This document shows, in pieces, positions 1-25,538 of a stretch of 25,762 bases of DNA (its first letter is position 1; each line of letters begins with the position of its first letter). The stretch lies in assembly GCA_004325065.1 (NCBI GenBank), contig PITI01000067.1, positions 1 to 25,762 on the forward strand, in the 5' to 3' direction. This stretch comes from Hamiltosporidium magnivora (Eukaryota; Microsporidia; Dubosqiidae). A program made the translations under genes and the position numbers. Below the pieces are notes generated by a model. It worked only from the letters and a program-made list of their open reading frames with translations, was not told the origin of the DNA and did not search any database.

Positions 1-330
1 CTCATAATAACACCCATTGACGCTCTCTCCCAGCTCTCTTCGGCATTTAGTCCTGACTCAAGTCCTCTTCGTCGATCAAAGGAAATTGTTTCGACTGTTT
101 TCTTAAGTACTATAGACTGAATGTATGCCTCTACATTCATGGGTATTTCTAGTCTTTTAAGATGAGATTTATGGTATTTTGTCACAATACCGTCCCAGGT
201 CATCACATAAGGGATTATCTCAACACTACACCTATAAATAAGACCCAACTCATTGGCTAGCAGGTCATACTTCCTAAGTTTTTCAGTTTCAACTATTTGA
301 AGTGAATCTTCGGAAGTGATTCCTACTTAA
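1..330 (-). mobile_element. 3' end of an R2/R4-like LINE (LINE B, copy 1), cut by the window edge
   Basis: Read on the minus strand, about 105 codons run open from near position 325 to the window edge. They encode the C-terminal part of a non-LTR retrotransposon polyprotein, with stretches such as VETEKLRKYDLLANELGL, EIIPYVMTWDGIVTKYHK and VEAYIQSIVLKKTVE. The link to R2/R4-type LINEs is from family knowledge of this tail, which follows the reverse transcriptase in elements found in microsporidia and animals. This fragment keeps its frame, unlike the other copy at 16009-19600, which aligns with it at nucleotide level (for example 17-62 against 16196-16240) but is far more decayed. The element is cut off towards its 5' side near 330, and its 3' end lies outside the window. 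I am confident it is a LINE and less sure of the clade. Confidence 0.8.
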
Positions 331-498
331 TAAATTTTAGAAATAAATATGAATTTAAAATCATCTAATAGGGATTTAAATATGACAATAAAAATTTAAT
401 TTTTCGAGTTTTTTTTAGCCTTTGAATCTTAAAAATTTTAATGCAGGTTATGAGGAAAATAAGCGAAGCTAAATCCGTTTCTATCATACTAAAAACTA
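331..498. other. AT-rich joint between two LINE remnants
   Basis: No coding potential is recognisable here. The stretch separates the truncated 5' side of LINE B copy 1 from the 3' end of LINE A. It may contain the A-rich tail or 3' UTR of LINE A, but no clear boundary or target-site duplication is visible. Confidence 0.4.
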
Positions 499-1760
499 CA
501 TATAACTAACTAAATCCCCGGCGCTACAGCTCTTGGAGAGCTCGGGCCTCCTTAACGATTCTCCTCCATTTTTCTCTATTGTGCACCGAGATTTTCATTG
601 CAATATATTGGGTTTCCTTGGATCGTTTTCAATCCCATTGGCATCCTTTTCATTGTCTCCCTAATCATCTCTTACATTCAGGTGCAGATTTAAGGATTTT
701 ACCAACAACTCTTTACATCAACATTCCTTCTTGTTTCTAGCCATCTAGGTCTTCGATGTTTCATAATGATGACCCAAATCATTTCATCATAAAGCCCGTG
801 GATTTCTAGATTTTTTCTAATTTTCACTTGTTATTTTCAAATATTAGGCCATATTTTCTTCTAAATATCTTTCCTTCTCATATGTCTGCCAAGACTTCGT
901 CTCTTTTTGTCATAATCAGTGTTTCGGAGCGTTCAGTACAATAGATCTAATAATAGTCCTATGTATTTGCCTTTCCCTATTGCGATTCAAAGGATTTGCC
1001 TTCGGTAAGCGCCTCAGAGCAAAGTATGGTTTCGTTACCTGAATTTATTCTTTTTTTAATCATAAAAGCATTTTTATTATCTTCGTTCAGAAGAGATCCC
1101 AAGATATTTGAAGCTCGATACACTTTCAAATGTACAAAAATTAATTTTTAAAGAGTTACACATGTATTTGGCACTGAGGAAATCACCAAAGTATATGTTT
1201 TGGTTTTATATTTTTCGGCCAGATTTTTCTAATTCCGCTGCTAATATTAGTAAATTCGATTTCATATCTTCTTGTTTTCTTCCCAAATTACCGGATCCTC
1301 TGCATATACTATATTTTGTGTGATTTTATTATATTGCACCACCAATGTTCTTTGAAAACTTACGGATTATTCCTTCTAGTGTTAGATGTAACAGTACGCA
1401 AGATAAAGTATCAAGCCGTATCAGTCCAGAATTAATTATAAAATCACAGGATATATCACCTGTTAACAATACCTTTCTTTTGTTCGATATATTGTCCTCT
1501 TAATTAAAGTAAGATTATTTATAAGATGTTTAACATTGCTGAGTTTTCTGTATTAAAATTGTCGATCAATGCTGTCATATACTTTCTTGTAGTCTACAGA
1601 AGATGATTTGTTGAGATATTGTGTTCATAGCGCTTACCAGGCCTCATTTTTAGATCAAATATTTTATAGGTTGTTGGTCGGGCTCTTCTACATTCACTTT
1701 AAAAATTTTCAGAACGATTTCTGCATAGGGCTCTAATATTTTTAAAATTCGAATTAATCA
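499..1760 (-). mobile_element. Decayed arthropod-type LINE reverse transcriptase (LINE A)
   Basis: On the minus strand, from 1760 down, one can follow a reverse transcriptase through several frameshifts and stops. The pieces are RLEPYAE (about 1715-1745), motif A as VDYKKVYDSIDR (1559-1597), a degenerate GLRQGD-type motif followed by DTLSCVLLHLTLE (about 1365-1425), and the catalytic YADD box mutated to YAED (1295-1306). The post-RT region follows with FESVSSFKYLG and YFALRRL-like stretches. The C-terminal tail ends in REKWRRIVKEARALQEL and a TAG stop at 524-526. This tail is characteristic of LINEs annotated in arthropods as endonuclease-reverse transcriptase. A TTAGTTAGTTA tract follows the stop (about 502-513), like the tetranucleotide tails of such elements. 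The endonuclease half is missing, so the copy is 5' truncated. RTE or Jockey/CR1 clade is not settled. Confidence 0.82.
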
Positions 1761-2059
1761 CACTGCCTAAGATTATAAGTTCTAAAAAAGACAAGAAAAG
1801 GAGATTTTCAATACATATTCCAAAGACGGTCAGTATTCAGCCGAGTATTCTAAAGAGGAAAGGGCATTTTGAGAAAGAATGCAGATCACTATACTTTTCT
1901 AGGAAATTATATCTACCTTTAACGAGCGGATAATCTAATACGAGTCGTTTTTACATTTGAAACGACTTTGATTGAACGTATTATTGAAACAGAGCCCGTA
2001 TTGCATATATAGAAGTAAATATAATACATAGATTTGTTAAACAAAAACAGTATGAGATT
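1761..2059. other. Junction between LINE A and the integrase relic; possible zinc-knuckle fragment
   Basis: No gene is intact. On the plus strand near 1840-1885 a short reading, KRKGHFEKECRS, resembles the second half of a CCHC zinc knuckle as found in retroelement Gag proteins, but the first two cysteines are absent. If real, it would belong to the same decayed LTR element as the integrase that follows, with protease and reverse transcriptase deleted. This is a weak match. Confidence 0.25.
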
Positions 2060-2760
2060 TCTCGAGACTAACTAAAAGAGCATGTTAAAGATTGTGAGCA
2101 TACAGCGGATTTAATTTTCTAAATACATTTCAACAGATATTAATTCCCTAAATCAACAAAAATATAATCTTTTTATGATGAATTGTGTAGATTCTAGGGC
2201 TTTAGTGATACAAATAATTATTTTCGTTTTCTTTTCAATTTAATTGAGGACATACAAAATATCTCTGGTATCTGAGCTGTTAATAATTTTTTGGAATAAG
2301 TGAAGATTTGCTAGAATTTTACTTAGCAAATTTGATGTTTCAGTGGTAATAAAATCTGATAACATATTAGAGTTTATAAATGCCCTACACAAGGCGTGGT
2401 TAACTAAACGTGTAATCAGAGATATAAATAGAGACCATGCAATCCAAAGATGTAAAACCAAGTCGAACGTGTCAATCAGACGATAAAAAGTCGGCTTGCC
2501 AACTGGCAGGAAGCAGGCGCAACAATATATAATGACTATACTAACGTGTTTATCATACATATAACAGAACAATAAATATTCAACAAAGAAATCGTAATCC
2601 ATCTCTTTCTTCGAACAACTAGCTTTTAAGTATATAATCTCTAGAAGCACAATATTTGAAAAGGAAACTCGTATAATAGGGCTTTCAATGAGAAAATTTT
2701 GAAGTATTTATCTTAAAAAAATTCAAAGCATAAATAGTGGAGCCTATAGAGGGTCTCGGG
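2060..2760 (+). pseudogene. Decayed gypsy-type retrotransposon integrase
   Basis: The plus strand shows a DDE integrase split over several frames. KEHVKDCEH (2075-2104) resembles the end of the HHCC zinc-binding domain. YNLFMMNCVDS (about 2160-2195) sits where the first catalytic Asp is expected and has Asn in its place. DTNNYFRFLFNLIED follows in a shifted frame. DVSVVIKSDN (about 2334-2363) carries the second Asp, and EFINALHKAWL lies just after it. RPCNPKM, then after a stop QVERVNQTIKSRLANWQ (2459-2509), contains the third acidic residue (the E of VER). A degenerate C-terminus runs on to about 2700. In-frame stops and at least three frame changes make it dead. No LTRs, Gag, protease or RT were found beside it. 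The integrase fold is clear; assignment to Ty3/gypsy rather than a related family is an inference. Confidence 0.75.
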
Positions 2761-4200
2761 TACGCACAAAGAATTTACCAAACCTGAAACACTACACTAC
2801 CCAAATAGCTTATGACTATGAAAAAATAGCAAATTTCTGGGGATATTGCTAAGCATTTTAAAAATCGCCGTGAGCAACAATTCAAATAGACTCCCGGAAG
2901 ATTTTTTTTATTGAACATAAAATCTAGATAAAATACAGACTTCTACGTACTAGAAAAACAAAAAGAGCATCTTTGACTCTTTTACGACAATTTGATGGTG
3001 AAAGTAACCGCTATTTCGATGATCAGCATGATCAAAGTAAAAAATAAAGATGACTACACAAGAACGATTTTCAAAGGTTAAATAAAAAGTATTCGATCCT
3101 TGTTTTGGTTGCTTGTAAAGTCGTACCCCTATAGTCCAGAAGTACAACAAATCGAAAGAAACAAATAGAAAATTTCTATTTGATCATTCTCGACACTGAA
3201 AAGTAAAACAAGAATGGAATACGTAAGTGTGTAGTTTATCGGCGATTATAATAAGGCGTTCCTATTTGCTAAATATTAGCTTCAATGGTTTTTTTATTCT
3301 GACAAAAATTTAAGAGCTATTTGGTTGAATATTAAAATTAAAAACCACTAAGCATTTTTTTGCATTGAATCCTGGATTAAATTTATAACAAAAAGCGCTT
3401 TCTTCTTTCAAATATATGAGCCATAAATGTAATATTGTTAAAATATTGGAAGTTTATAAAATCCTTAGAAAATAAAGCAGTTAGTATAAAATCGATAGAA
3501 AATAAATGAGGTAATATGGGAAGAAACCTGTATTCCATTGGAAACGAGGGTGGTTTATTAGCCGATGACGGTTAGGATTGTCTGGAACATAATTATTTTT
3601 TCAGATTTATCAAGATTAAACAAAATTTTAATAAATTAAGGAAAGTATTTTTTTGCGTATTTTTTTGTTGGAGTTTTTATAGTGCATTGTATGTTTATAT
3701 AGGATAAATAGTCTCGCGTTTCTATTAATCCGGACAAAATAAATTAACTCGTTCAAGATACCAAAAGATAATATTTTAAAATTTCTATTATAAAAATATT
3801 AACCTATTTCATGCAAGCATATTTCATTTTTACTTCTTTGTGGCTAATTCTGCAACTTTAAATCTCCAAATTTTTGACTCCGAAGCTAGTTTTTTCCATT
3901 AAGTATTCTTACGTAAAAAAAGCTGTTTTAAACATTAAAAGACAAAAATTTGTAATTTTTTATACGTATTAGTAACAGTATGTTTTTGTTACATATATTT
4001 TTTTAAATTTAAAAATTTCTATAGCCTTTCTTTGCATATCTGGAATCAAAAAGATAGTGTGTAAGATTATAGACAAGATACGGTCAATATTTCTGAAAAT
4101 TTCTATAATTTGCGTCCAACAGTATAGAATTGATTTTTTAATACTAAACTTTTTAAACAAATTTTATTCACAGTAAACCCTCATCAAAATTAATTGAATA
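2761..4200. other. Unassigned degenerate sequence between integrase relic and Helitron
   Basis: Both strands were read and only short frames were found (the longest are about 66 and 63 codons on the minus strand). None has a recognisable motif or signal peptide. Base composition resembles the neighbouring decayed elements. The left few hundred bases could be the 3' part and LTR of the integrase-bearing element, but no repeat pair supports this. The boundary at 4200/4201 is the Helitron insertion point. Confidence 0.4.
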
Positions 4201-4236
4201 CTAGCTTACTCGTCGCGCGTTGCAGCGATCTCAAAA
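4201..4236 (-). repeat. Helitron 3' terminus (CTAG, GC-rich subterminal segment)
   Basis: On the minus strand the element ends GCAACGCGCGACGAGTAAGCTAG, written here only as landmarks: a CGCGCG core, then GACGAGTAAG, then the CTAG end at 4204-4201, with T as the next base. Helitrons characteristically end in CTRR before a T and carry a short GC-rich hairpin just inside the end. A weak CGC/GCG pairing around TGCAAC is visible, so the hairpin appears partly eroded. The match to the ends of insect Helitrons is from memory of the family and is not computed. Confidence 0.75.
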
Positions 4237-4290
4237 GAAAAAATATAAAGTACGCATTCAAATATATAAATTTTAACGGTGTTTATTCAT

Positions 4291-5570
4291 TTATTTGAGA
4301 GCATTTGGATATACAATATTTTTTTTGTCTGGTATATATACGACTAAATCAAGAAGAATTTCTACGCGGTAAATAGCCACATGGTTTGACCATGTCAGAA
4401 GCACGGATTCTCTATATATATTCAGCGGATTTGCAGCGATAGTCTCTGGGATTTGTTTATTGTCATCGCAAAACAAGCAGCACATAAAATATATACGTTA
4501 AAATTCATATGGCATGTCTGTTGAAACTATCGGAATGCGTGGTAACAGTATATCATCTTCTTTATATTTACCCTAAAAAATAGTTGCTTAAATGACATTC
4601 TACCCAAATTTTGTTACCAAATGTCTCGTACTATTACACAGTTTTTGTGAGTTGATGTTTCGAAAATGAGGATTAGCACTCTATATTTCAATTTATAAGC
4701 TTGTGATAAACACCAGGCAAATCTAGTGAATTTAAGAATTAGGTTGGAAACTTGAAAACTTCTTCTTGATCGACAGCGTTGTTATCAATAGAAATATGTG
4801 TCGTGACTTCGTCTGGTATCAAATTTCGAATATAAATTGATGGTAGGCACATAATTGTTCGTAGCAGCTAATATAGCACGTTCACCAATCAACTAATGAT
4901 TTTTGTAATTACTGTGATATTAGGAAATAAAATTTTTTGGAACCATGATATATTATGTGAGTTTATTATATGCTAAATTTTTTTCACAATATCTAGTAAA
5001 TGTTTCGCGAATATTTTTGCGGATTCATGATTTTGTATTTAAGGGCAATATTTGTTTTATTAAACAGATTCTTACATTTTTTCTATAAGATTGGAAATTT
5101 GAGACACGTACTTAGTTCATCAGCCGGCGTGGAAAGTATAATAACAGGCGAAGTTTGACGAAAATAACCGGAACACAAAATTCTGTGCACCAGCAAAGTT
5201 GCGTTTTCCTCGCAAATCTTGCAGCGTACGATAAGCGCTTAAAACGCTTTTTAATGGAGCATTGTGCGTTCGTATAGAATATGTTTACATGTTTTAAGAA
5301 CTTCTCTATTTTTAAAATTTTTAGTTATGTTGCATGTTGTCGTCCTACTTGTTTGTAAATTAGATGGCGATTTTTGCACCAAATTGGCTGTCAGATCACC
5401 ATCTATAAACGTCTCCGCAATTCTAGATGATGCGATTGCAAGTGCAATTTAATTCTGGGATAGTATAGTAGTAAAGATGATCGAAAGAACAAAAGTATTT
5501 ACACTGCCCTCAGCGCTTACATAAAGAAAAATCCTCCGTTTTTTGTTTTGTTTTATTGCATGATTGCGTT
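4291..5570 (-). pseudogene. PIF1-like helicase domain of the Helitron, decayed
   Basis: This is the C-terminal helicase of the Helitron protein, which unwinds DNA during transposition. From 5570 down, the Walker A region reads SAEGSVNTFVLSIIF (about 5476-5517) where the family has a GGTGKT box, so the loop is destroyed. Next come IALAIASSRIAETFIDGD, a segment ending in TCNITKNF, the DExx-box region as LYERTMLH (shifted frame), the LQDLRG region, a broken DFRQ motif and ILSTPADEL (about 5101-5145). A poorly readable middle section covers 4490-5100. The last 64 codons (4485-4291) are open: HVAIYRVEILLDLVVYIP (motif VI, at 4383-4366) and NIVYPNALK before a TAA. The open end is best explained as a short stretch that escaped stops, not a gene. 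Confidence 0.85.
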
Positions 5571-6760
5571 ATATACAAAGCGTTTTCAGAATAACTTTAA
5601 GAAGGTTCTTTACAACAAATATTTTCAAATCATCTATATTCAGGGATTTTCCCGTTGTAAATTACAAACATAAAGATTATTATATGCTCGATATGCCGCA
5701 CATATGCTGGATTGCTTCAGTTTTATGCATACAATTGCCAGACAGATATCCCCATTCGTCACTAACGCGCGATTCTATACGTTTGCATCTAAGTGCATAT
5801 CAATATTTGTTATTTGCAGATTAATTACGATGCCTTCACTCATATAATATTTTTATTTTTACTAAATATTTGGATTAGATGGGAAACACGATGTCAATAT
5901 TATTGCTTATAGAGCGCGTATTTTCTGGGCAGATAAGTCTTACATACATCTCAAGGGCTATATTTGATTAGTCATCATTTTCAAGAAGATTAAATTATTG
6001 ACAAGTTCCTCAAAAAGTTGCTCAGACCTCACCCTCTCTGATCAAAGTTCTTGGAAATATTTCGAGACGAGTATTTTACTAACAAAGCCGACGAAAAAAA
6101 TTCTTGATTGTGTCGAAGAACTGTATCAAGACAGCTTTAAGAGCCCGAAGAATATATATTTAAATTCTCTTCAACCTATTCCATTCGTTCACGGCTTTGA
6201 AGTTTTTTAGTTACTGCATTCTATAAGTATGAGGTGCGTTCCTTCAAAGTAAAGTAGCGTTCTTGCAAAGAAATATTCAGAGCTAATTTGAAGAAGTCGG
6301 TTAATGCAGTCAGTGGTGCATATGATGCTTTTCCATATATTTTCTTGTGGGGAATACACACGAGATCATTTTCAAAACACGCCGCCGAATAAACAACTGT
6401 CGGATTACGTTCATGAATAAAATGAAAAATACGTCAAATTGCTATAGTGGTACTAATATAGTGTCATAATGAAAAATTTTCGATTTCTTTAAGAGGTAAT
6501 TTGTTTTTTACAAACCGAAAATTGCAAATTACAGCCTTTCTTGACATATTTACAACTTTATTTGATAGATTTTACCGAATCGCAATACTCGACATTAATA
6601 TGGGTTTTAAACATTTTTGAGAGTAATGAAGAGTACGATACAACCTGGCGAATATAACTTCAAAGTCTTTTTTTCACTTTACAGATCATTTACCTCCCAT
6701 CTTTAACATCCAGCGACTATATTATAGATACCTATCATTTTCTGTTATGTTTCGGCGTGT
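5571..6760 (-). pseudogene. Helitron linker between Rep and helicase, decayed
   Basis: Minus-strand fragments match the conserved linker of Helitron proteins in the right order: KTHINVEYCDSVKSIK and CKYVKKG (about 6545-6640), FIHERNPTVVYSAACFEN (about 6370-6425), APLTALTDFFKLAL (about 6280-6325), KIRAL-AIILTSCFPSNP with one stop (about 5895-5950), and IVINLQITNIDMHLDANV (about 5775-5830). Plus-strand open frames here are chance. The short spacing of these blocks shows that little has been deleted. Confidence 0.8.
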
Positions 6761-7335
6761 AAGTCTTCTGAATAGCGTTTCGTGCATTGGCCAGCTTAAA
6801 CACACAAAGAAGGCTTGATGATCGCCCAACATGGTCCATGAATCATGTTTTTTTATGAGAATTTCAAATAATTTAGGATAAATTTCTGAATTTTGTATTT
6901 CTGCATAAATGATAGTATCAATTCCATCAGGTGCAATTTTGTCGATCTACCATATAAGAATATGTGCATGTTTTAGTTTCTTTTTTTCCCATTCAATAGA
7001 GTACATCCAACAGCGTATTTATTAAAAACATAGTGTTTTACAATAAAATATATCAATGACTTAATTTTTTGTTTGAATACACGTACAATGATTTCATGTC
7101 GAATCAAAGAAGATTATTCATGTATCAGAAGTTCTTTGATTTCAGCCCAAGTAAGATTGCAATTGAATCTAATGAGTAAATCTGGAGGAACGTATGCACA
7201 AACTTGAGCCATCGCATCTAGAGCGTATTTTGTAAGTGCCGTAGACTTCCCTAAAATCGGCAGAATGATCATTTTTACTGCTTTATAGAGATTTTTGTCG
7301 GTAGAAACAGCGTCTTGTAAATGAATTATATCTCA
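6761..7335 (-). pseudogene. Helitron HUH Rep (replication initiator) domain, decayed
   Basis: The Rep domain nicks the transposon ends using a tyrosine and a metal-binding His-hydrophobic-His motif. On the minus strand, LQDAVSTDKNLYK (about 7285-7323) begins the conserved part. AYVPPDLLIRFNCNLTWAEI (about 7140-7200) corresponds to the first Rep motif. HEIIVRVFKQKIKSL follows. SIEWEKKKLKHAHILIW (6950-7000) contains the HxH motif, with the CAT-GCA-CAT codons at 6970-6962. APDGIDTIIYAEIQNSEIYP and a degenerate IHGPC segment follow towards 6800. The HxH residues are intact, but frameshifts and stops around them mean no protein can be made. The catalytic tyrosines were not located with certainty. 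Confidence 0.87.
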
Positions 7336-8570
7336 GAAGGTAATTTAGTTTATTTTATTCAATTGAAAAGTAGTCTTTCGGTTACGATTTTTGCATGATA
7401 TCGAAATGATTGAAGAAACAATTTCCGACAGTTTAAAATATAATTGTTTTTGTTAATACGGATCATAAATTGATAGTAATAGTTATTTATACACCAAATT
7501 TCTTATTTGTCTATTCATGTAGTTGTGGCGTTTTAATTTTGATGTTAAATGATATTCATCAACTTGCCAGAATAAAGTTTGATGTCGCATAGTGTCATAG
7601 GAGCAAAAACTTTTAGAATCTACAAAAATTACCGTCTTTCTGAAAAAGAATCTTTACACTTATAACATTGTTAAATTTAGTTTCAACTTTTAAAATTGCT
7701 ACCTTATTAATTTTCGGAGAGTTTTATTTTCTTTGATGTTCACTGGCCTGTGTTTTGTCAGCTTTAATTATAACATCAAATTATCAAATAGCGGTTTTTC
7801 AATAGCTGTCCTAAATAGCCGGACCAGTTCGTTGTTTAACTAAATAAAATTTGAAATGAAGCAATAATTTGTCGATTAGAGTATGTGTTTACCTGAAAAA
7901 GTTAATAAATTTGGGTTTTCTTGGTTCACATAAAATAATTTTGAAAGAATTTATGATCTGAATTTGCTTTTGATAAAAGTTATCAGCCCGAGGAAAAAGC
8001 GCCTCTTTACTTTGTATGTCAGCATATAATTTTCACGTATAATTTCAGTTTCTCCGAATGCTGTAATTAGAAACTTGAATTATACATCCATATATTTGGC
8101 ATACAAATGTTTTTATCGTATTTTATTACCTAAATTAATGTAGATAATGGATCCGGTCGGAGAATTATTTCCGGTAGTTTCACTTTTCCACCTGCAAAGC
8201 ACATTCTTGGGGTTTCGCTCCTTAATTAAAGAACAAAATTAAATAAAAAAAACTTGTATATTTTTCCTAAGACAACACTATTATGAAGACTTTAATGATA
8301 ATCAGCCTCATATGGAACGCAGCAAACTTGCAATCGGGCGATATTTTTTTCTAATTCGAACATTGCACTTTCAATTGATTTACAGTCTTACTTTCTTCTG
8401 TTGCTTTAAATCAGTTAATCGGATCTTGCAGTACGCAATCTTTTCGTTATATTTCGTAGTTCTCATGTTCTGTTGTTTCATTTAAGGGAGATTGTGCGGA
8501 GCGCAATCGATTGAATCCCAACTTTCTATTGTGATACTCTGTTTGGTCCCTAGCTTTTAACATCCTTTTC
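7336..8570 (-). pseudogene. Helitron N-terminal region, decayed
   Basis: From 8570 down the minus strand shows an Arg/Glu-rich stretch with NRLRSAQSPLNETTEHENYE (about 8440-8510), typical of the repeated N-terminus of these proteins. ADYH-SLHNSVVLGKIYKF (about 8260-8320) and ETPRMCFAGGKVKLPEI (about 8160-8215) follow, the latter a well-conserved Cys/Gly block. Further on are FGETEIIRENYMLTYKVK, NNELVRLFRTAIEK, IKADKTQASEHQRK, HQTLFWQVDEYH and NYILNCRKLF, the last near 7425-7455. They appear in the family order but in alternating frames. The start of the original protein and the 5' terminus of the element are not resolved. Confidence 0.78.
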
Positions 8571-9194
8571 TATCTTTCCAATGTTCGATTTCGAAGATAT
8601 TTTTTCAATTTATGAGCATAAGTTCTACAATCACAACTGTTCTTATTTGTACTTTTTTAAAAAAAGCAAATTTGATGATTGAGTATAAAGAATAAATAAC
8701 ACCTTTTTTTAGTAATATTTGTATATTACAGCATCATTATACATGTACAATTATTTCAGAAGCACCCTGCAAACCACTTTTAGATATTAATTCCGTTAAC
8801 AGGATACCCTTTATACTAATACCTTTTAATTTACCCCCTCATATTATATCTTTTTAATAAAAATTCCATAATAAACTTTTTAGATAAATTACCTTTATAG
8901 TTAAACAATACCCCTTTATTAAGAAAAAATATCTATTAGTTACATTCTTAAAACACATACACAATCACACTCATTTTTAGATATATAGATAGATAGAAGA
9001 TTTATGTTGCAAAACAAATAAAAAATTGTAAAAAAAATCTAAAATTGAGAAAATATTATTGTGAACTGATTAAAATATATTTTGATAAAAAAATAATATT
9101 AATATTTTATCAACCAGCAAAATATTTTTTATCCGTATGTTTCATTAAAATTTAATTAATTCTTTAATATATAAACCATCTAAATTGTAAGTCC
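8571..9194. other. AT-rich spacer upstream of the 667-aa gene
   Basis: No coding sequence is seen. The first part may still hold the 5' end of the Helitron. Between about 8790 and 8930 several short ACCCTTTAT/TACCCCC-like runs occur in an otherwise A/T sequence. Near 8980-9000 there is a small GATA-type run. The last 200 bp before the gene are extremely AT-rich. The promoter of the downstream gene must lie here, but no CCC or AAATTT element sits right before its ATG. Confidence 0.5.
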
Positions 9195-11198
9195 ATGTTT
9201 ATGAAATATTTCTATATATTATGCGAATTAAATATAATATATTCCTCGAGATACATAAACACCGATTATTATAATTCCTTGAAAAAAGAAAGTTTTCAAG
9301 CGAATTATGATTTGAATACAAATATATTCGAAAACAATAAAGAATGTTTAAATGAAGCAAATGATACCCAACACTTCTGCAATTCCTGTCCGATTTTAGA
9401 TGTTACACAACAAATTAGAACTGCTGATAACGAATCTGATGCCCAATATGAGATAAAGAAAGAGATTTTATCTGAATCCTTTTCGAATGGTGAAGAAAAA
9501 TATCTGGAAGGAAATGCCAAAGATTTTCATAATTTAGAAAACAAAGTCCAAAAAAATAAAAAACAAATGCTTCGTTATTATCCGTATAAAAAAAGAAGTG
9601 ATTTAAGAAGAAGTATTTCTGTAGATTTATCAAGAAATTATTCATCTGAGACAGATACTCATTTTTCTTGTAACAAAGTGGAAAAACAAAGAACATCAGA
9701 CATCTACAGGCATCAAACCGGTTTAGAATTTCGGAATGATACTTCAGATGAAGATTATAAGTCTACTGAGCAGCGAAAAACGCCAGACTTTTTTTTAAAA
9801 TCCGAAGTAGTTGATCCGTTATACATTAACTCTGATTCCGATACTAAAAGTTTTCTTGAATCATCCAGTACTATTGATATTTCAAAAATGTCTAAATCTA
9901 AACTAGAAATCGCAAAAGAAAGCTTGGAACATAAATTGGATTTGCTAAAAAAAAAAATTCAAAAAACAATAATAAATACAAAAGGAAAATCATATGCCGT
10001 TCTTAATGAATCACGAAAAGAGTTATTTTCTTCGGACATACAAACTTTTATATCAGGCGACTTTTATATTAATGCCAAGTATATACAAAAAGATCCTATT
10101 CCATTTTTCGATCTGATAGATTCAGTGGCTGGAAAAGAAGAAACTTTTTGGCATAAATCTGGGAATTCTGACATACTTCGGAATATAGGCGAAAATATGT
10201 TAGAATGTGTTGAGAAAATCAATTTATATAATGATAATTCTCCTATTTTTACTTATTATCCTGGTTTAATACATATAAAACACTTTATTAAAAATATAAT
10301 TCTCAATGATATAAATTTGGTGAAAAACTCTTGTTTATGGATTTTTCTGCTTAAATTTGTACAATCACTTAGTATGTTTCCATTAAAGAACAAACATCTG
10401 AATCAAATATCATCCGGGAAAAATTGTTGCCCAAAATACAGTGAATATGATGCATACAACGGAGATAACTATATTTTTAATTTGTTAAGAAGTCAATATG
10501 AATTATTTGATACAATGGCTAGACATATTTTTAAAAAAACAGAAATTTTTCCAGAATCTACTCAGATGCTTGATTTTATAAATAAAAGTCTTCATTTTAG
10601 CAATAAAGATATTCATATTTCACTTGGTAAGCATATAGGATATATTAGAGTCATAACAGATTGTATGCTTAGAATGAGCCCAAACACCATATCAATTTTT
10701 ATTTTGCAGATAGAAAAGCAAAAACTTAGCAATTTGAAAGGCGTGGAATTTCGTTCTGAGCTTTCTATATTTTTCTGGAATATTTCTCACGAGGCAAATA
10801 TTTTGAACGATGAATCTACTTTAGACTTTCAAATAATCTATAAGAGAATTGTTTTAGCCTATATTGATTTTTTCAAGCATGAAGCTTTACAAGTTGAATT
10901 TTCGAAAAGTAAAAATGCTAGGTATTCAGAGCATATAAATTTCACTCTTTTTAATTTATTTAAACCCTATTGTATTGAAAAGCTTCTAATTAATGAATTG
11001 AATTTTAAATTCTGGATGCAAACTGCTGAAGCGTTATGTGTTCTATTCAATTTTTTCTTAAAATGTGAATTGAATCCCCAAGCTTATACGGATTCTTATG
11101 GGATACAAGCTTTCGTAGAATGTAATAGGAGACTTAAATTTATTCAATCGTTTCTTAGTTACCAATATAATTCAAAAATGAATTTTAAACGAAAATAA
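9195..11198 (+). CDS. Lineage-specific protein of unknown function, 667 aa
   Basis: I do not recognise this protein. The ATG at 9195 is the first after an in-frame TAA at 9165. The first 20 residues (FMKYFYILCELNIIYSS) are hydrophobic and could be a signal peptide, with Met3 as an alternative start. Residues 30-230 are polar, rich in Ser, Glu, Asp, Lys and Asn, and probably disordered. Residues 240-267 form a likely coiled coil (KSKLEIAKESLEHKLDLLKK). From about 285 to 655 the sequence is denser in aromatic and aliphatic residues and looks like a helical domain, with YYPGLIHIKHFIKN at 364-377 and LWIFLLKFVQSL at 391-402. A decayed paralogue lies downstream at 13960-15853, so this is a small gene family. 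The C-terminal domain is the conserved part. A stem-loop and an AATAAA follow the stop. Secretion or function in the host is only a guess. Confidence 0.85.
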   Translation: MFMKYFYILCELNIIYSSRYINTDYYNSLKKESFQANYDLNTNIFENNKECLNEANDTQHFCNSCPILDVTQQIRTADNESDAQYEIKKEILSESFSNGEEKYLEGNAKDFHNLENKVQKNKKQMLRYYPYKKRSDLRRSISVDLSRNYSSETDTHFSCNKVEKQRTSDIYRHQTGLEFRNDTSDEDYKSTEQRKTPDFFLKSEVVDPLYINSDSDTKSFLESSSTIDISKMSKSKLEIAKESLEHKLDLLKKKIQKTIINTKGKSYAVLNESRKELFSSDIQTFISGDFYINAKYIQKDPIPFFDLIDSVAGKEETFWHKSGNSDILRNIGENMLECVEKINLYNDNSPIFTYYPGLIHIKHFIKNIILNDINLVKNSCLWIFLLKFVQSLSMFPLKNKHLNQISSGKNCCPKYSEYDAYNGDNYIFNLLRSQYELFDTMARHIFKKTEIFPESTQMLDFINKSLHFSNKDIHISLGKHIGYIRVITDCMLRMSPNTISIFILQIEKQKLSNLKGVEFRSELSIFFWNISHEANILNDESTLDFQIIYKRIVLAYIDFFKHEALQVEFSKSKNARYSEHINFTLFNLFKPYCIEKLLINELNFKFWMQTAEALCVLFNFFLKCELNPQAYTDSYGIQAFVECNRRLKFIQSFLSYQYNSKMNFKRK

Positions 11199-11224
11199 GT
11201 TTAATTATATAGGAAAAATTAAAG

Positions 11225-11244
11225 TGTTTGAAATCATTCAAACA
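11225..11244 (+). terminator. Perfect stem-loop just after the 667-aa gene
   Basis: TGTTTGAA and TTCAAACA form an 8-bp stem around the loop ATCA, 27 bases after the stop codon. A stretch with AATAAA follows about 10 bases later. In a compact microsporidian gene this could mark the 3' UTR or affect polyadenylation. A stem this short can also arise by chance in AT-rich DNA. Confidence 0.35.
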
Positions 11245-12700
11245 AATTATATTTAAATAAATTTTTCTTTCCTTCGTCTTTTCGAATTTTACAGTTTTTT
11301 TCTGTTATAATATTATTGAAATAGATAAATATTGTGTTTTTATGAGAATTGACGATATGTATTAACAAATTTAGGTTGTTTTTTTGCTTTCATCTCAAGT
11401 AAGATATATGGCGGTAGAGACTAATGATTTTTCTATATTTGAAGTACCATGTTTCTAAGACTTTCTTTAACGATTTTCAATCAAGGTCTCAATCTAATAT
11501 TTAATTACCTGTGATAGATTCGAAATATTTTATTAGTTGGTATTTAGCTAGGATAAACTACACTATATTATTGAATTGATTATATTCGAAATCATGATAA
11601 TTATTGTAATTAAATTTAAGTAGCATCCGATTTTCAATGCTTATAATAGTCTGTGCTATTTCAGCGAATTTATTTGCAAATGTTTAGTTGTAATGTTAAA
11701 AATAAGTGTATATCTTGACTTATGAAAATCGAAAAACAAAATTTTAAATGCAACGGGCAATTTGATGAATTTTTTTGGTTTTAAATAAAAGCATCATATT
11801 AAAGGGAATAAGTAATAAAAATATGTAGGCTAATGTAAATTTATATATTTGTTTTAAAAAATGACAAATCTAAGAATATTAATTTGTTTTAGCAGTTTTC
11901 AAGTTAGAAAAATTCAACCTTGATAGTTTTTTTAAGAAATTTGCAGGTTTCCAATTTGGGTTCACATTTGCATTAACATCGACTATAACTCTTACACTCT
12001 GTCTTGGAGGATATTCTTGCGAATTTTCTTAAGGAAAATATGCCCCGTGGAATGTTTAATAAGAATCAACTTTTAATTACATATTTTAAATTTGTCTCTC
12101 GCGTAAAGCTGATTTGGGATTCATGTTTGTACCAAATTCATAAAAAGGAGCATTTTTTATTTCCCGAACAAGTGCAATAAAGCCTCTTGCATCTGTATGG
12201 CTTCAGTATTCATATGAGACTTGAATTATTGCTGAGTAATCTTCGTTGACGAAAGAGCGATTTGAATTAGATCTTTTAATCTGTTCGGTTTGTTTTTGAA
12301 TTTCTTGATAAAATTTTCTAATATTTAATCTGTACGAATTTCTTTGTTAATACTTAAAATTATTGGGAAATCATCATAACCTTAATTTGCACATTTCTCA
12401 TGATCAGTGACCGATAATTTCGAATGTTCAGAAATTTTTCCTTCCCTTTCTCTGTTTGAAAATTAGAACATGATTTAGATAATAACGCTAGGTATTAGCT
12501 ATAACCATGAATAAACAATATTTACTCCTTCTTGTTTTTGATTTTGTTATGCTAACTTGTTTATATAGCGGCAAAGTTTCTTTAAAAGATTGTAAAGTCT
12601 CCTAATCTATTGATATTACCTTTAAGTCTATTTCGGATTTTATTTAGGCAGAACTCTGTAAGAAAAAAACTTTTTAAACTACTTTTAACTCTGTTTTGAA
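11245..12700. other. Degenerate region with unrecognised protein-like fragments on the minus strand
   Basis: The left half (to about 11930) shows nothing. Between about 11945 and 12440 the minus strand has protein-like stretches in changing frames. Examples are EKCAN, stop, GYDDFPIILSINKEIRTD, stop, ILENFIKKFKNKPNRLKD (12229-12440); DARGFIALVREIKNAPF and YEFGTNMNPKSALRERQI (about 12085-12195); and QEYPPRQSVRVIVDVNANVN (about 11950-12035). They lie downstream of the integrase relic on the same strand and may be part of the same element or a separate dead gene. No family was recognised. Confidence 0.4.
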
Positions 12701-13959: not shown

Positions 13960-15853
13960 ACAATGTCTTTGGTATCAAAAGATTTGGATCGTTGTTCCAG
14001 ACAAAAAGAAAAAGACTTCAAGAATTTATAAAAAGTAGTATATCATTTGATTACCAAAAGGAATCTCTCTCATTCTAACTTATGATAATCAATAAAGTTA
14101 TAACCAATCAATTACAGGTCTAGTAAAAAAAGATGCAGAAAAACTTTCTTGCTATACTTCTTTAGATACTTATGAAAAAAATATATCATCTAAAAATTCT
14201 TCAAACAACGATGATGATATTTTGTCTCAACAAAATAAATCGGATAAAGAATAGAAAAATAGCGAGAAAGCAAATAAGAGGAAATGAAGCCATTGTATTC
14301 ATGCTGGTTATGAAAGACAATATCCGCTTGGAATGTCTATGGAAAAAAAATTTCCACACCCATAATTCATCGAAATAATACTATTTAAAAAATCTAATTT
14401 TGTAATGCATCAAAACTTACGGCCGAAAATTTTATAAAAATCAAAACTCTGATTATATTTGAGGAAATCGGGACTCAGGATACATCCCATATCAAATCGA
14501 ATTTGGATATTTATAATAATCCGGAAGAACTTATAGATATTGATAATCCGAAATTACCTGTATCAAAACTTAAATTAATAATGGAAAAGTTAAAAAAAGA
14601 GCTTGATCTAGTTAAACAAGAATGTTTAGCTAAAGCTATGAATACAAAAATAATGTATATGTTATGTTTATTGATTCATCAGAATTAGAAGTTGGTCTTA
14701 GGGATATAATTACTTTATAAAGGCAGATTACGATATAAACGCAGTGTATGTACTAGAGGATACCAAATTCTTCTCGAATTAATAAAATATGTAGATCAAA
14801 ACGAAAAATTATTTTGGAAAAATTCCGGTTTTTCCGAACTCTCTGATATTAAAAATTTAAAGGATAAAATTTTAGATCGTATCGGTAAATTTAATTTTTG
14901 TAAACACAATTCTCTTTTCCTTACATACTTTCCAGGTTTGATACACATGAATTTTTTTGTTGAAAATTTAATCAAAGAAGATATAAATTTAGTGAAAAAT
15001 GCATGTCTGTGGATTTTATTGCTTAAATATGTATAATCTCCGAAATTTATATCAATAAAAGATCTAAATACATCAGGTATTTGTCATGAAACATATGATG
15101 ACTCTGAATATGAAGGTTTTGAAATTTATACTGGAAATAAAATTATTCTATGTAAAATGAAAGAATTATACGAAACATTTGAAGCAATAGTGAGACGTGT
15201 TTTTTCAAAAACAAAAATTTCTACCGAATTTAATGTCATGTTTGATTTTATAAAAATGAATTTGAAAACAACCTATAAAGACAGATATGTTTCAGATCGT
15301 AAGCTCATCTTTTTTAGCAAAGTTCTAACAGATTGTGTACTGAGAACTAGCCCAAATCTAATTTTGAATTTTATTTTACACATGCAAAAATAAGACTGTA
15401 GCCACTTTAAGCCTAAAAATTTTATTTTTTTGATTAACAATTTTTTTATGAGAATTTATCGCAAATTGATTGAATTAAACGATGAGAATATGAAGGAAAT
15501 TAGCGCTTTTTATGTAGAAGTTGCATTGAAATATATTGATTTTTTTAAAAAAAGAAGCGGCTTATTTGGATTTTTCCAATGAAAAATATCCGGAATGTAT
15601 TCAGAAAATGGTTAAAATTGTTAAAGAGATTTTTAAAACCGATCAAGTGCCAGAAATTGCTTCAAAACTTACATACTTAAGAGACCTGTTGAGTTTTAAC
15701 GAAGATTTATGTGTTCTTTGAAATTATATCATAAAATCGAGACAAAATAGTCAACCTTATTCGGAAATTTATTCATCTCGAACTTCTGAGGCATGTCAAT
15801 GGAGATTACAAGAAATTAATATTTTATTGGCAGCAATAAACAACAAAAAATAA
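13960..15853 (+). pseudogene. Decayed paralogue of the 667-aa gene
   Basis: The plus strand encodes, in changing frames, a relative of the protein at 9195-11198. KLPVSKLKLIMEKLKKELDL (about 14550-14610) matches its coiled coil. ADYDINAVYVLEDTKFF matches GDFYINAKYIQKDPIPFF. LFWKNSGFSELSDIKN (about 14810-14860) matches FWHKSGNSDILRN. FLTYFPGLIHMNFFVENLI and INLVKNACLWILLLKYV (to 15033) match residues 361-398. After a TAA comes KELYETFEAIVRRVFSKTKI, then VLTDCVLRTSPNLILNFILH (to about 15380). KYIDFFKK and a C-terminal part end at a TAA at 15851-15853. At least five stops or frame changes are present. The N-terminal third is hard to align, as expected for a fast-evolving polar region. The start is approximate. 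Drift of a duplicated gene is the simplest explanation. Confidence 0.85.
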
Positions 15854-19860: not shown

Positions 19861-20493
19861 TTAGAATACCTCTTCTTCTTCTAACTTACCCATCTTCCAA
19901 TCCGTATTCAACTTAGTAGGTGGTGATATATTAATATTACTTTCTTCAACAGTAGCAATCTGTACAGTATGTGACATTTTGGTGTCTCTGTAATGTTCAA
20001 TAAGACAAGCATCCTGAATAAGTGAAAATGCCTGGTCAATATTTGGTATTTCGTTTTCCAATTTGGCTCTAAGAAATGGAGTCACCAAATGCTGTCCTAA
20101 AGATGTCACAATAACATCCGAAGAATAAAAATTGCCAAGATGGTTTACTGCCTTCAAGGTTCCATCACCACCTGCCACAACAACTTGTACATTCAAAGGT
20201 TCCAAATCAGATCTTCTACCATAAAGAATACGTTGGATCAATTTATGAAATCCGTTTGGTGAAAGAGGCACAGGATCTTTAGATATTTCGAGATATAAAA
20301 TTTTCAAAAGATATTGAATATCGCTGTATTCACCAGATAATCCTAACAGAGTCGAAGCACTAACTTGATGTATACGAGATACATCTGAAAATTTGGCAAG
20401 AGACCCATAAGAAAGTTGTGTATCGGTAGCTAATATTATTCCTTTGTCATATTTAAATGCAATTACAGAAGCACCAGTTAGTATTGTTTTCAT
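19861..20493 (-). CDS. PRE4: 20S proteasome subunit beta-7 (PSMB4/Pre4 type), 210 aa
   Basis: This is a non-catalytic beta subunit of the 20S core particle, which forms the chamber for ATP-dependent protein breakdown in cytosol and nucleus. GASVIAFKYDKGIILATDTQ (7-26) is the usual first strand pair. SYGSLAKFSDVSRIHQV (28-44) with GSLAKF in this place is diagnostic of the PSMB4/Pre4 branch, as are LLGLSGEYSDIQYL (49-62) and the LYGRRSDLEPLNVQVVVAGG stretch. The C-terminal half keeps TPFLRAKLE, LIEHYRDTKMSHTVQIATV and a final TKLNTDW block. Human and yeast homologues carry an N-terminal propeptide and are longer; here the protein begins almost at the mature N-terminus. The ATG is preceded directly by CCCCG. 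The short acidic tail LEEEEVF is a lineage feature. The family call is firm. Confidence 0.95.
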   Translation of the reverse strand: MKTILTGASVIAFKYDKGIILATDTQLSYGSLAKFSDVSRIHQVSASTLLGLSGEYSDIQYLLKILYLEISKDPVPLSPNGFHKLIQRILYGRRSDLEPLNVQVVVAGGDGTLKAVNHLGNFYSSDVIVTSLGQHLVTPFLRAKLENEIPNIDQAFSLIQDACLIEHYRDTKMSHTVQIATVEESNINISPPTKLNTDWKMGKLEEEEVF

Positions 20494-24662: not shown

Positions 24663-25538
24663 TTAAAAATAAAAAAACTTAATTTTAACATATAATTTCC
24701 AAAAAGGTACCAAAACGAGTGCCAACGGTAAAAACAGAAAATCCAAAACAGAATCACATCTTCCTGCCACCTTAAGCAGCCGTGTATTGACATCAGACAC
24801 AATTCTATTATTATAATACATACTGTTTAGCAGATGTTTGGCGCGTTCTTCTGGAGTACAACTCTTAGAACATTCTCTACCTTCAATATCTTTAGTAAAT
24901 TCTGGTTTATTCTTGTTTTCTTCGTCGTATCCACGTGATTTAATCGTCGAAACATAATAAACGTATAAAAACACACCACTTCTCGCCATTTCCATCTCTA
25001 ACGAATCAAAAAGCGAATTTATTGCAGCCTTGCACGGTGAATACGAAGAATAACCAGGAAACGAATAAAAAGAAAGCGTAGAGCTCACCATCACAAACCC
25101 AAACGGCCGTTTGTTGTTGTTATAGAAATGCATCAGCGTATTAACAGTCCCAAAATAATTTATCTCCATACTCTTCTTAAACACATCAACATCCAGATCC
25201 TCAAAATATCCCGGATAACATATTCCAGCACAGTTAAACACAAAATCATAATCATCACCTAAACACTCCAACGTCTCGTACCGCACAGCATCAGCCACAA
25301 ACACAGAAAATCCGTGTTTTTCTTTTATACTCTTCAGTAAATCAAATCTCCTAGCAGCTACTGTAACATCACCCTTTCTTTTTTGTATCTCTATCGCTAA
25401 AGCCAACCCTAATCCACTAGTACCCCCAATAATCAATACTTTCTTGTTTTTAAAGTTTATACTTCTTCTAAACATCCCCCTTCCCACATATACACCTATA
25501 CATATTAAAATAGGTATTCCTACTAAATACACCCACAT
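24663..25538 (-). CDS. TSC10: 3-ketodihydrosphingosine reductase (KDSR/Tsc10 type), 291 aa
   Basis: This short-chain dehydrogenase reduces 3-ketodihydrosphingosine to dihydrosphingosine with NADPH, the second step of de novo sphingolipid synthesis, at the ER membrane. Residues 2-19 are an N-terminal membrane anchor. KKVLIIGGTSGLG (32-44) is the nucleotide-binding glycine motif, AARRFD (61-66) follows the second beta strand, and NCAG is at 102-105. The catalytic Ser lies in VSST (151-154), with Tyr166 and Lys170 in YSSYSPCK; a Y-S-P-x-K active site is typical of KDSR proteins. A C-terminal hydrophobic segment (about 264-289) matches the membrane-associated tail of the family. All catalytic residues are present, so it should be active. 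Other membrane SDRs are possible, but the combined anchor, YSPxK site and tail favour KDSR. The ATG is preceded by GAATTTTTA, an AAATTT-like element. Confidence 0.85.
   Translation of the reverse strand: MWVYLVGIPILICIGVYVGRGMFRRSINFKNKKVLIIGGTSGLGLALAIEIQKRKGDVTVAARRFDLLKSIKEKHGFSVFVADAVRYETLECLGDDYDFVFNCAGICYPGYFEDLDVDVFKKSMEINYFGTVNTLMHFYNNNKRPFGFVMVSSTLSFYSFPGYSSYSPCKAAINSLFDSLEMEMARSGVFLYVYYVSTIKSRGYDEENKNKPEFTKDIEGRECSKSCTPEERAKHLLNSMYYNNRIVSDVNTRLLKVAGRCDSVLDFLFLPLALVLVPFWKLYVKIKFFYF

What the first reader, a model, noticed from the sequence alone, without database searches (positions are those of the whole stretch)
4201..8570. Nearly complete arthropod-type Helitron in a microsporidian contig
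Helitron terminus, PIF1-like helicase, HUH Rep and N-terminal region are all readable in order on the minus strand, down to single blocks such as TCNITKNF, KLKHAHILIW and NIVYPNALK. The wording of these blocks is that of Helitrons common in arthropods. Microsporidia are obligate intracellular parasites, often of arthropods, so transfer from the host is the simplest origin. A full-length copy, though dead, means the element arrived or replicated as a unit.
Basis: partly seen in the sequence, partly recalled or inferred. Interest (0 to 1): 0.75.

Follow-up and report, generated by a model that had tools for sequence, protein, structure and literature searches.

The report
Dead animal-type Helitron in a microsporidian
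A long-dead rolling-circle jumping gene (Helitron) of a kind otherwise seen in animals sits in the genome of a microsporidian parasite of water fleas, where it once copied itself to many places; Helitrons were already known in this parasite, so the gain is detail on their origin and spread.

Summary
Window 4201-8989 (minus strand) is one decayed full-length Helitron, about 4.8 kb: N-terminal region, HUH Rep, PIF1-like helicase and 3'-CTAG|T end in order, with 45 in-frame stops and several frame shifts. The contig is microsporidian: its short-chain dehydrogenase is 99% identical, full length, to Hamiltosporidium tvaerminnensis. The family has at least 14 insertions in the held assembly (10.7 Mb): two full-length copies, two partial classes (2.4-2.6 and 1.5-1.7 kb), a class of about 0.7 kb, and one copy cut by a contig end. 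Ends are shared and flanks unrelated, so it transposed. In trees it nests among animal Helitrons, nearest scorpion, frog and snail copies. Union with the only fungal Helitrons found, or with a second Hamiltosporidium Helitron family (nearest named relative: the springtail Folsomia), is rejected. Animal origin is well supported; Daphnia as donor was not testable, and Helitrons of other microsporidian genera were not compared. Helitrons in H. tvaerminnensis were reported in 2014: a new member of a known kind.

The parts
4201..8989 (-). decayed full-length Helitron, family A copy 'C67', about 4.79 kb
   Evidence: tblastn to P0002 in order; 3' end; 5' end
4201..4223 (-). 3' terminus ending in CTAG, followed by T; similarity among copies stops here
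   Evidence: 9-copy alignment; 14 copies: identity 0.657 in the last 12 bases against 0.343 in the 40 bases after the next base
4294..5643 (-). PIF1-like helicase remnant (Pfam PIF1 at 5014-5559; Walker A lost; C-terminal block NIVYPNALK at the low end)
6077..7502 (-). Rep (HUH) remnant; Pfam Helitron_like_N at 7015-7428; HUH block KLKHAHILIW about 6950-6979; stop at the first Rep tyrosine
7503..8339 (-). N-terminal protein region (P0002 residues 142 to about 425)
8340..8960 (-). presumed start of the reading frame and 5' non-coding region; the stretch 8547-8932 aligns with C449 and parts of it with other family A copies
8961..8989 (-). 5' terminus, A|TC..., shared with other family A copies
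   Evidence: 4 edits from the shared 29-base motif
24663..25538 (-). context: short-chain dehydrogenase, 99% identical to H. tvaerminnensis, identifies the contig
19861..20493 (-). context: open reading frame of a proteasome subunit

Best explanation
It is a dead autonomous Helitron. An element of an animal Helitron lineage entered the Hamiltosporidium lineage by horizontal transfer (inferred from the tree). Its Rep-helicase protein then copied it by the rolling-circle route known for Helitrons (mechanism inferred from family membership), inserting between A and T, as its ends suggest. Internally deleted derivatives were mobilised by the intact copies (inferred from shared ends and unrelated flanks). 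The nine copies with protein remnants are all broken; for the two full-length ones the decay was independent.
For: Domains and order. The search with the window copy gave 203 hits; of the 120 listed, 54 carry an organism name by my count, all Metazoa, 44 arthropod. The tree of 88 rows (82 proteins picked by hand from the 211 listed, plus six copies) puts the window copy and C449 in an 8-row set with Centruroides, Eleutherodactylus, Physella, two Cordylochernes rows and one unnamed row (SH-aLRT 99). When the pieces are read against three other reference proteins an 8-row set again holds them (98-99), and each copy alone falls in a 7-row set (98-99); membership was not printed, but the same rows are nearest. 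A mixture-model tree of 44 rows agrees (7-row set, 99). AU tests reject uniting it with Hamiltosporidium family B (p 3.9e-66) and with Microbotryum (p 5.0e-56). Of the nine copies not found by an end pattern, the base after the 3' end is T in 7, and the last four bases are CTAG in 4 and CTAA in 1; the five pattern-found copies all end CTAG|T, partly by selection. The 5' motif has 6 or fewer edits in 8 of 13 copies against 1 of 390 shuffles. Size classes. Stops shared by the two full-length copies: 1, with 1.45 expected.
Against: The window copy has a very long branch (1.2 to 2.1 changes per site) and odd letter make-up; the program warns that its pairing with C449 may be false, and the pairing was not starred with the Choristoneura reference nor (91). 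The AU test shares the model's pull between long branches. The 5' motif was picked by eye from the copies, so its shuffle test is not independent; 5 of 13 copies do not show it well (C449, C14, C107, C72, C219), though for C72 and C219 the fetched stretch may stop short of that end. No subterminal hairpin could be shown.
Confidence: 0.83

Rival explanations
1. An old Helitron inherited from the common ancestor of microsporidia or from fungi, not a transfer from animals.
For: Heinz et al. 2012 take a weakly supported tree of T. hominis and N. [quoted passage not shown]
Against: Family A nests inside a metazoan clade with short animal branches (same nearest rows). AU tests reject A with Microbotryum and A with Hamiltosporidium family B. 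But T. hominis, N. ceranae and nearly all fungal Helitrons were not in my set, and one planned test (A, B and Microbotryum together) was not finished.
Confidence: 0.09
2. The contig, or the Helitron stretch, is host (Daphnia) contamination or an assembly chimera.
For: The identified host gene lies about 16 kb from the element; reads were not available, and the contigs of the other copies were not each tested for microsporidian genes.
Against: SDR on the same contig is 99% identical to H. tvaerminnensis. Family copies are on 14 contigs of this assembly, those with protein remnants all broken. No COX1 in the assembly (that microsporidia lack it is recalled). Family B has an annotated H. magnivora relative.
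Confidence: 0.03
3. Several separate transfers of related animal elements rather than one arrival followed by transposition inside the parasite.
For: Copies are 51-66% identical in the helicase-to-3'-end stretch, and the two full-length copies share no stops beyond chance.
Against: Partial copies share deletion junctions within the limits of the alignment and the short class shares one layout, as expected from amplification in one genome. The two full-length copies pair in the tree, with the warning above (SH-aLRT 95; 91).
Confidence: 0.15

Closest known systems
Animal Helitrons of the Centruroides vittatus / Eleutherodactylus coqui / Physella acuta / Cordylochernes group (P0002, P0048, P0078, P0088)
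   Same: Rep-helicase order and sequence; highest identities of the two full-length copies 42-49% over 392-985 columns; nearest rows in each tree shown.
   Different: Those are long predicted animal proteins; the window copy and its kin are broken and in a microsporidian.
Helitron families of Hamiltosporidium tvaerminnensis in Parisot et al. 2014 (PMC4202319, Table 1: 4 families; also N. bombycis 1, N. ceranae 3, V. culicis 1)
   Same: Same organism or a very near one, same Pfam domain PF14214; these families may well include the one in this window.
   Different: In the passages and the section that I saw there are counts only; the trees are said to cover the four largest superfamilies, and I saw no Helitron tree, ends or derivatives.
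Hamiltosporidium family B (C484, C301, C277, C228; H. magnivora PIF1-like helicase P0122)
   Same: Helitron, same assembly, decayed.
   Different: A separate lineage, nearest to Folsomia candida among named animal relatives; C484 and C301 are closer to each other (K2P 0.16) than any pair in family A (0.46 or more).
Lep1 Helitrons in Nosema bombycis (PMC4038834, passages seen)
   Same: Helitron shared between a microsporidian and arthropods, read as horizontal transfer.
   Different: Short non-autonomous elements, 83-93% identical to Lep1; here an old autonomous family with its own derivatives.
HeliDaph Helitrons of Daphnia pulex (PMC2884549, passages seen)
   Same: A Daphnia species has families named as autonomous and non-autonomous Helitrons.

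Membership tests
Helitron (canonical) | HUH Rep domain with paired tyrosines | tested here: met
   PF14214 match 7015-7428, over the curated cut-off; HAH block readable, a stop at the first tyrosine, second readable
Helitron (canonical) | PIF1-like helicase after Rep | tested here: met
   PF05970 match 5014-5559, over the cut-off; tblastn to Rep-helicase proteins in order
Helitron (canonical) | 3'-CTRR end | tested here: met
   CTAG at 4201-4204; CTRR kept in 5 of the 9 copies not found by an end pattern, and in 10 of 14 with the five pattern-found ones
Helitron (canonical) | 5'-TC end | tested here: met
   TC in the window copy and in 7 of the 8 copies with 6 or fewer edits to the shared motif; motif chosen after seeing the copies; not clear in 5 of 13
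Helitron (canonical) | insertion between A and T | tested here: met
   T after the 3' end in 7 of the 9 copies not found by pattern (12 of 14 in all); A before the 5' end in 6 of the 8 copies with a clear motif, the window copy included
Helitron (canonical) | no target site duplication | not tested
   no empty site was compared
Helitron (canonical) | subterminal 3' hairpin | tested here: inconclusive
   no consensus structure in 9 decayed ends; single-sequence folds weak
Helentron (Helitron2) | endonuclease domain | not tested
   no search made for it
Microsporidian Helitron lineage of its own | groups with other microsporidian Helitrons | tested here: not met
   union with Hamiltosporidium family B and H. 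magnivora P0122 rejected; other microsporidian genera not available
Fungal Helitrons | groups with fungal Helitrons | tested here: not met
   union with Microbotryum, the only fungal rows listed, rejected

The most novel reading that the evidence does not exclude
Hamiltosporidium acquired two unrelated Helitron lineages from animals in separate events, and at least one of them (family A) was active inside the microsporidian, giving rise to several classes of internally deleted derivatives before it died. The parasite genome would then be a fossil record of transposon invasions from its hosts.
Probability: 0.7. Interest if true: 0.5.

Novelty: new member of a known kind. Interest (0 to 1): 0.35.

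Why it matters
[quoted passage not shown] A Helitron family with defined ends, full-length copies and several derivative classes in one parasite lets the arrival, spread and decay of a transferred element be followed in order, and gives end sequences with which the donor can be sought in Daphnia and other animals.

Tried and rejected
The lengths (1.5 to 5.0 kb) use the earlier 5' starts and are 35-69 bases short for the six of those eight copies with a later motif placing (C67, C596, C117, C15, C107, C460). Viral contigs as a source of intact relatives: one scan, nothing confirmed. A shared hairpin at the 3' end: none predicted. Shared stops between C67 and C449, which would mean duplication of an already dead copy: 1 shared among 41 and 39, 1.45 expected. 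7tm receptors as a test of animal contamination: nothing rang in the controls either, so of no use. The 17-base 3'-end pattern gave 15 matches against 2 for its reversed control; three of the 15 were copies already known, and five of the rest were fetched and aligned.
Full report
WHAT WAS CHECKED. The window is contig C67 of an assembly of 10,742,791 bases in 644 contigs. On its minus strand, Pfam Helitron_like_N matches 7015-7428 and PIF1 matches 5014-5559; Pif1_2B_dom was found in other copies but not here. tblastn with the Helitron protein of the scorpion Centruroides vittatus (P0002) gives pieces in order covering residues 142-1460 from 8339 to 4486; shuffled sequence reaches 24.3 bits at most in 100 draws, against 174. 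The reading is broken by 45 in-frame stops and by frame changes.

WHOSE DNA. The short-chain dehydrogenase at 24663-25538 is 99% identical over its full length to one of Hamiltosporidium tvaerminnensis; of the 20 hits, the other named ones are two more microsporidia (Vittaforma, Cucumispora) and three basidiomycetes. No COX1 was found in the assembly; it rang in 8 of 14 control genomes. I tried five times to run the microsporidian SSU rRNA model on the assembly and did not complete. The 99% match does not by itself tell H. tvaerminnensis from its close relatives.

ENDS. Family copies found by protein and DNA search were fetched and aligned. Nine 3' ends align and similarity stops at CTAG|T. 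A 17-base pattern made from that end gave 15 matches with up to 3 mismatches against 2 for the reversed control, and a 5' query matched within 0.7 kb of five of them. Those five were fetched and are short elements: 0.64, 0.71 and 0.76 kb in the three where both ends are placed (C453, C306, C328). Over 14 copies, mean pairwise identity is 0.657 in the last 12 bases and 0.343 in the first 40 bases after the next base. Among the nine copies not found by the pattern the next base is T in 7, the last four bases CTAG in 4 and CTAA in 1; the five pattern-found copies all read CTAG|T, which the pattern favours. At the other end, a shared 29-base motif starting with TC is found with 6 or fewer edits in 8 of 13 copies and in 1 of 390 shuffles; A precedes it in 6 of the 8. 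The motif was chosen after seeing the copies. In the window it places the 5' end at 8989, give or take about 10 bases.

SIZE CLASSES. Full length: C67 and C449 (contig C449 repeats its first 4.5 kb at its end at 99.9%, so its copy is counted once). Partial: C15 and C107 (2.4-2.6 kb; C15 resumes near P0002 residue 817, C107 is placed there by its DNA alignment with C15), and C117, C596, C14, C460 (1.5-1.7 kb, resuming near residue 1138 to 1146). Short: C72, C219, C328, C306, C453. C588 is cut by a contig end. The C117-C596 and C14-C596 alignments run on through the junction; C460 aligns with C117 in two neighbouring pieces; C107 and C15 start together. These are junctions as far as alignment of old AT-rich DNA allows, not base-exact, and the search that showed them was permissive enough to give chance matches too. 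In the helicase-to-3'-end stretch C67 and C449 differ by K2P 0.46 and the other pairs by 0.53-0.82.

ORIGIN. The search with the window copy gave 203 hits, 120 listed; by my count 54 of the listed rows carry an organism, all animals, 44 arthropods. The tree of 88 rows and 1202 columns (82 of the 211 listed proteins, chosen by hand, and six copies) puts C67 and C449 in an 8-row set with a scorpion, a frog, a snail, two pseudoscorpion rows and one unnamed row (SH-aLRT 99), inside a larger animal clade; plants and Microbotryum lie elsewhere. With pieces read against Choristoneura, Calliphora or Ancylostoma proteins an 8-row set again holds both (98-99), and C67 or C449 alone sits in a 7-row set (98-99), with the same nearest rows; the members of those sets were not printed. 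Under LG+C20 with 44 rows the result is the same. The window branch is very long and its letters odd, and the program warns about the join of C67 and C449, so the exact sister is open. Family B (C484, C301, C277, C228 and H. magnivora P0122) falls with two Folsomia rows and an unnamed protein (SH-aLRT 100). One clade of A and B is rejected (p 3.9e-66), as are A with Microbotryum (p 5.0e-56) and B with Microbotryum (p 7.0e-7).

HOW IT WORKED. By its domains and ends it was an autonomous Helitron: Rep nicks, helicase unwinds, a copy is inserted between A and T. That is established for the family (recalled) and inferred here. Shown here: ends shared by 14 insertions, unrelated flanks, internal-deletion classes, independent stops in the two full-length copies. 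Inferred: one arrival, mobilisation of derivatives by intact copies, death of the family.

WHAT IS KNOWN. Parisot et al. 2014 list four Helitron families in H. tvaerminnensis (PMC4202319; passages, and section 7 with Table 1). Heinz et al. 2012 drew a weakly supported tree for T. hominis and N. ceranae Helitrons (PMC3486916, passages). Lep1 Helitrons are reported from N. bombycis (PMC4038834, passages). A 2025 survey of microsporidian genomes treats Helitron load as a trait (PMC12558613, passages). Two later papers on Hamiltosporidium transposons do not have the word Helitron in the main text (PMC7313128 and PMC10542269, term search). In the listings and the passages read I saw no description of these ends or derivatives; the library lacks most subscription journals, and supplements were not read.

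VERDICT. A real Helitron, nearly complete in outline but dead, of animal type, in Hamiltosporidium; ordinary as a kind, useful in detail. Confidence was lowered by 0.02 on checking, because the CTAG|T counts of five copies are partly a product of how they were found.

Noticed in passing
G000 contig C449 (L026, L027), 1-4499 and 7755-12253: The contig begins and ends with the same 4.5 kb at 99.93% identity, offset 7754: a recent tandem duplication, a circular molecule or an assembly artefact, holding an old Helitron copy.
   Followed up: no
L026 about 4420-4750: A GC-richer stretch inside the 5' region of the C449 copy that looks like a separate inserted element; it may explain why that copy is longer than the window's.
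   Followed up: no
window 1-328: Near-identical repeat also at the ends of contigs C277 (97.6%) and C596 (100% over 98 bases): perhaps a high-copy repeat that broke the assembly; an open frame of 82 aa runs off the window end.
   Followed up: no
window 10191-10717 and 14863-15389: 65.7% identical direct repeat; the first lies in the 667-aa open frame next to the Helitron (9195-11198), which has no Pfam match over cut-off: perhaps a gene and a decayed paralogue.
   Followed up: no
contigs C484, C301, C277, C228: Second Helitron family (B), nearest named animal relative Folsomia candida, with an annotated H. magnivora protein; C484 and C301 are much closer to each other than any family A pair.
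   Followed up: partly
contigs C117:12069-12293, C223:8626-8925, C368:3195-3535, C612:551-567 and others: Further matches to the 5' query or the 3' pattern that were not fetched; perhaps more family A copies.
   Followed up: no
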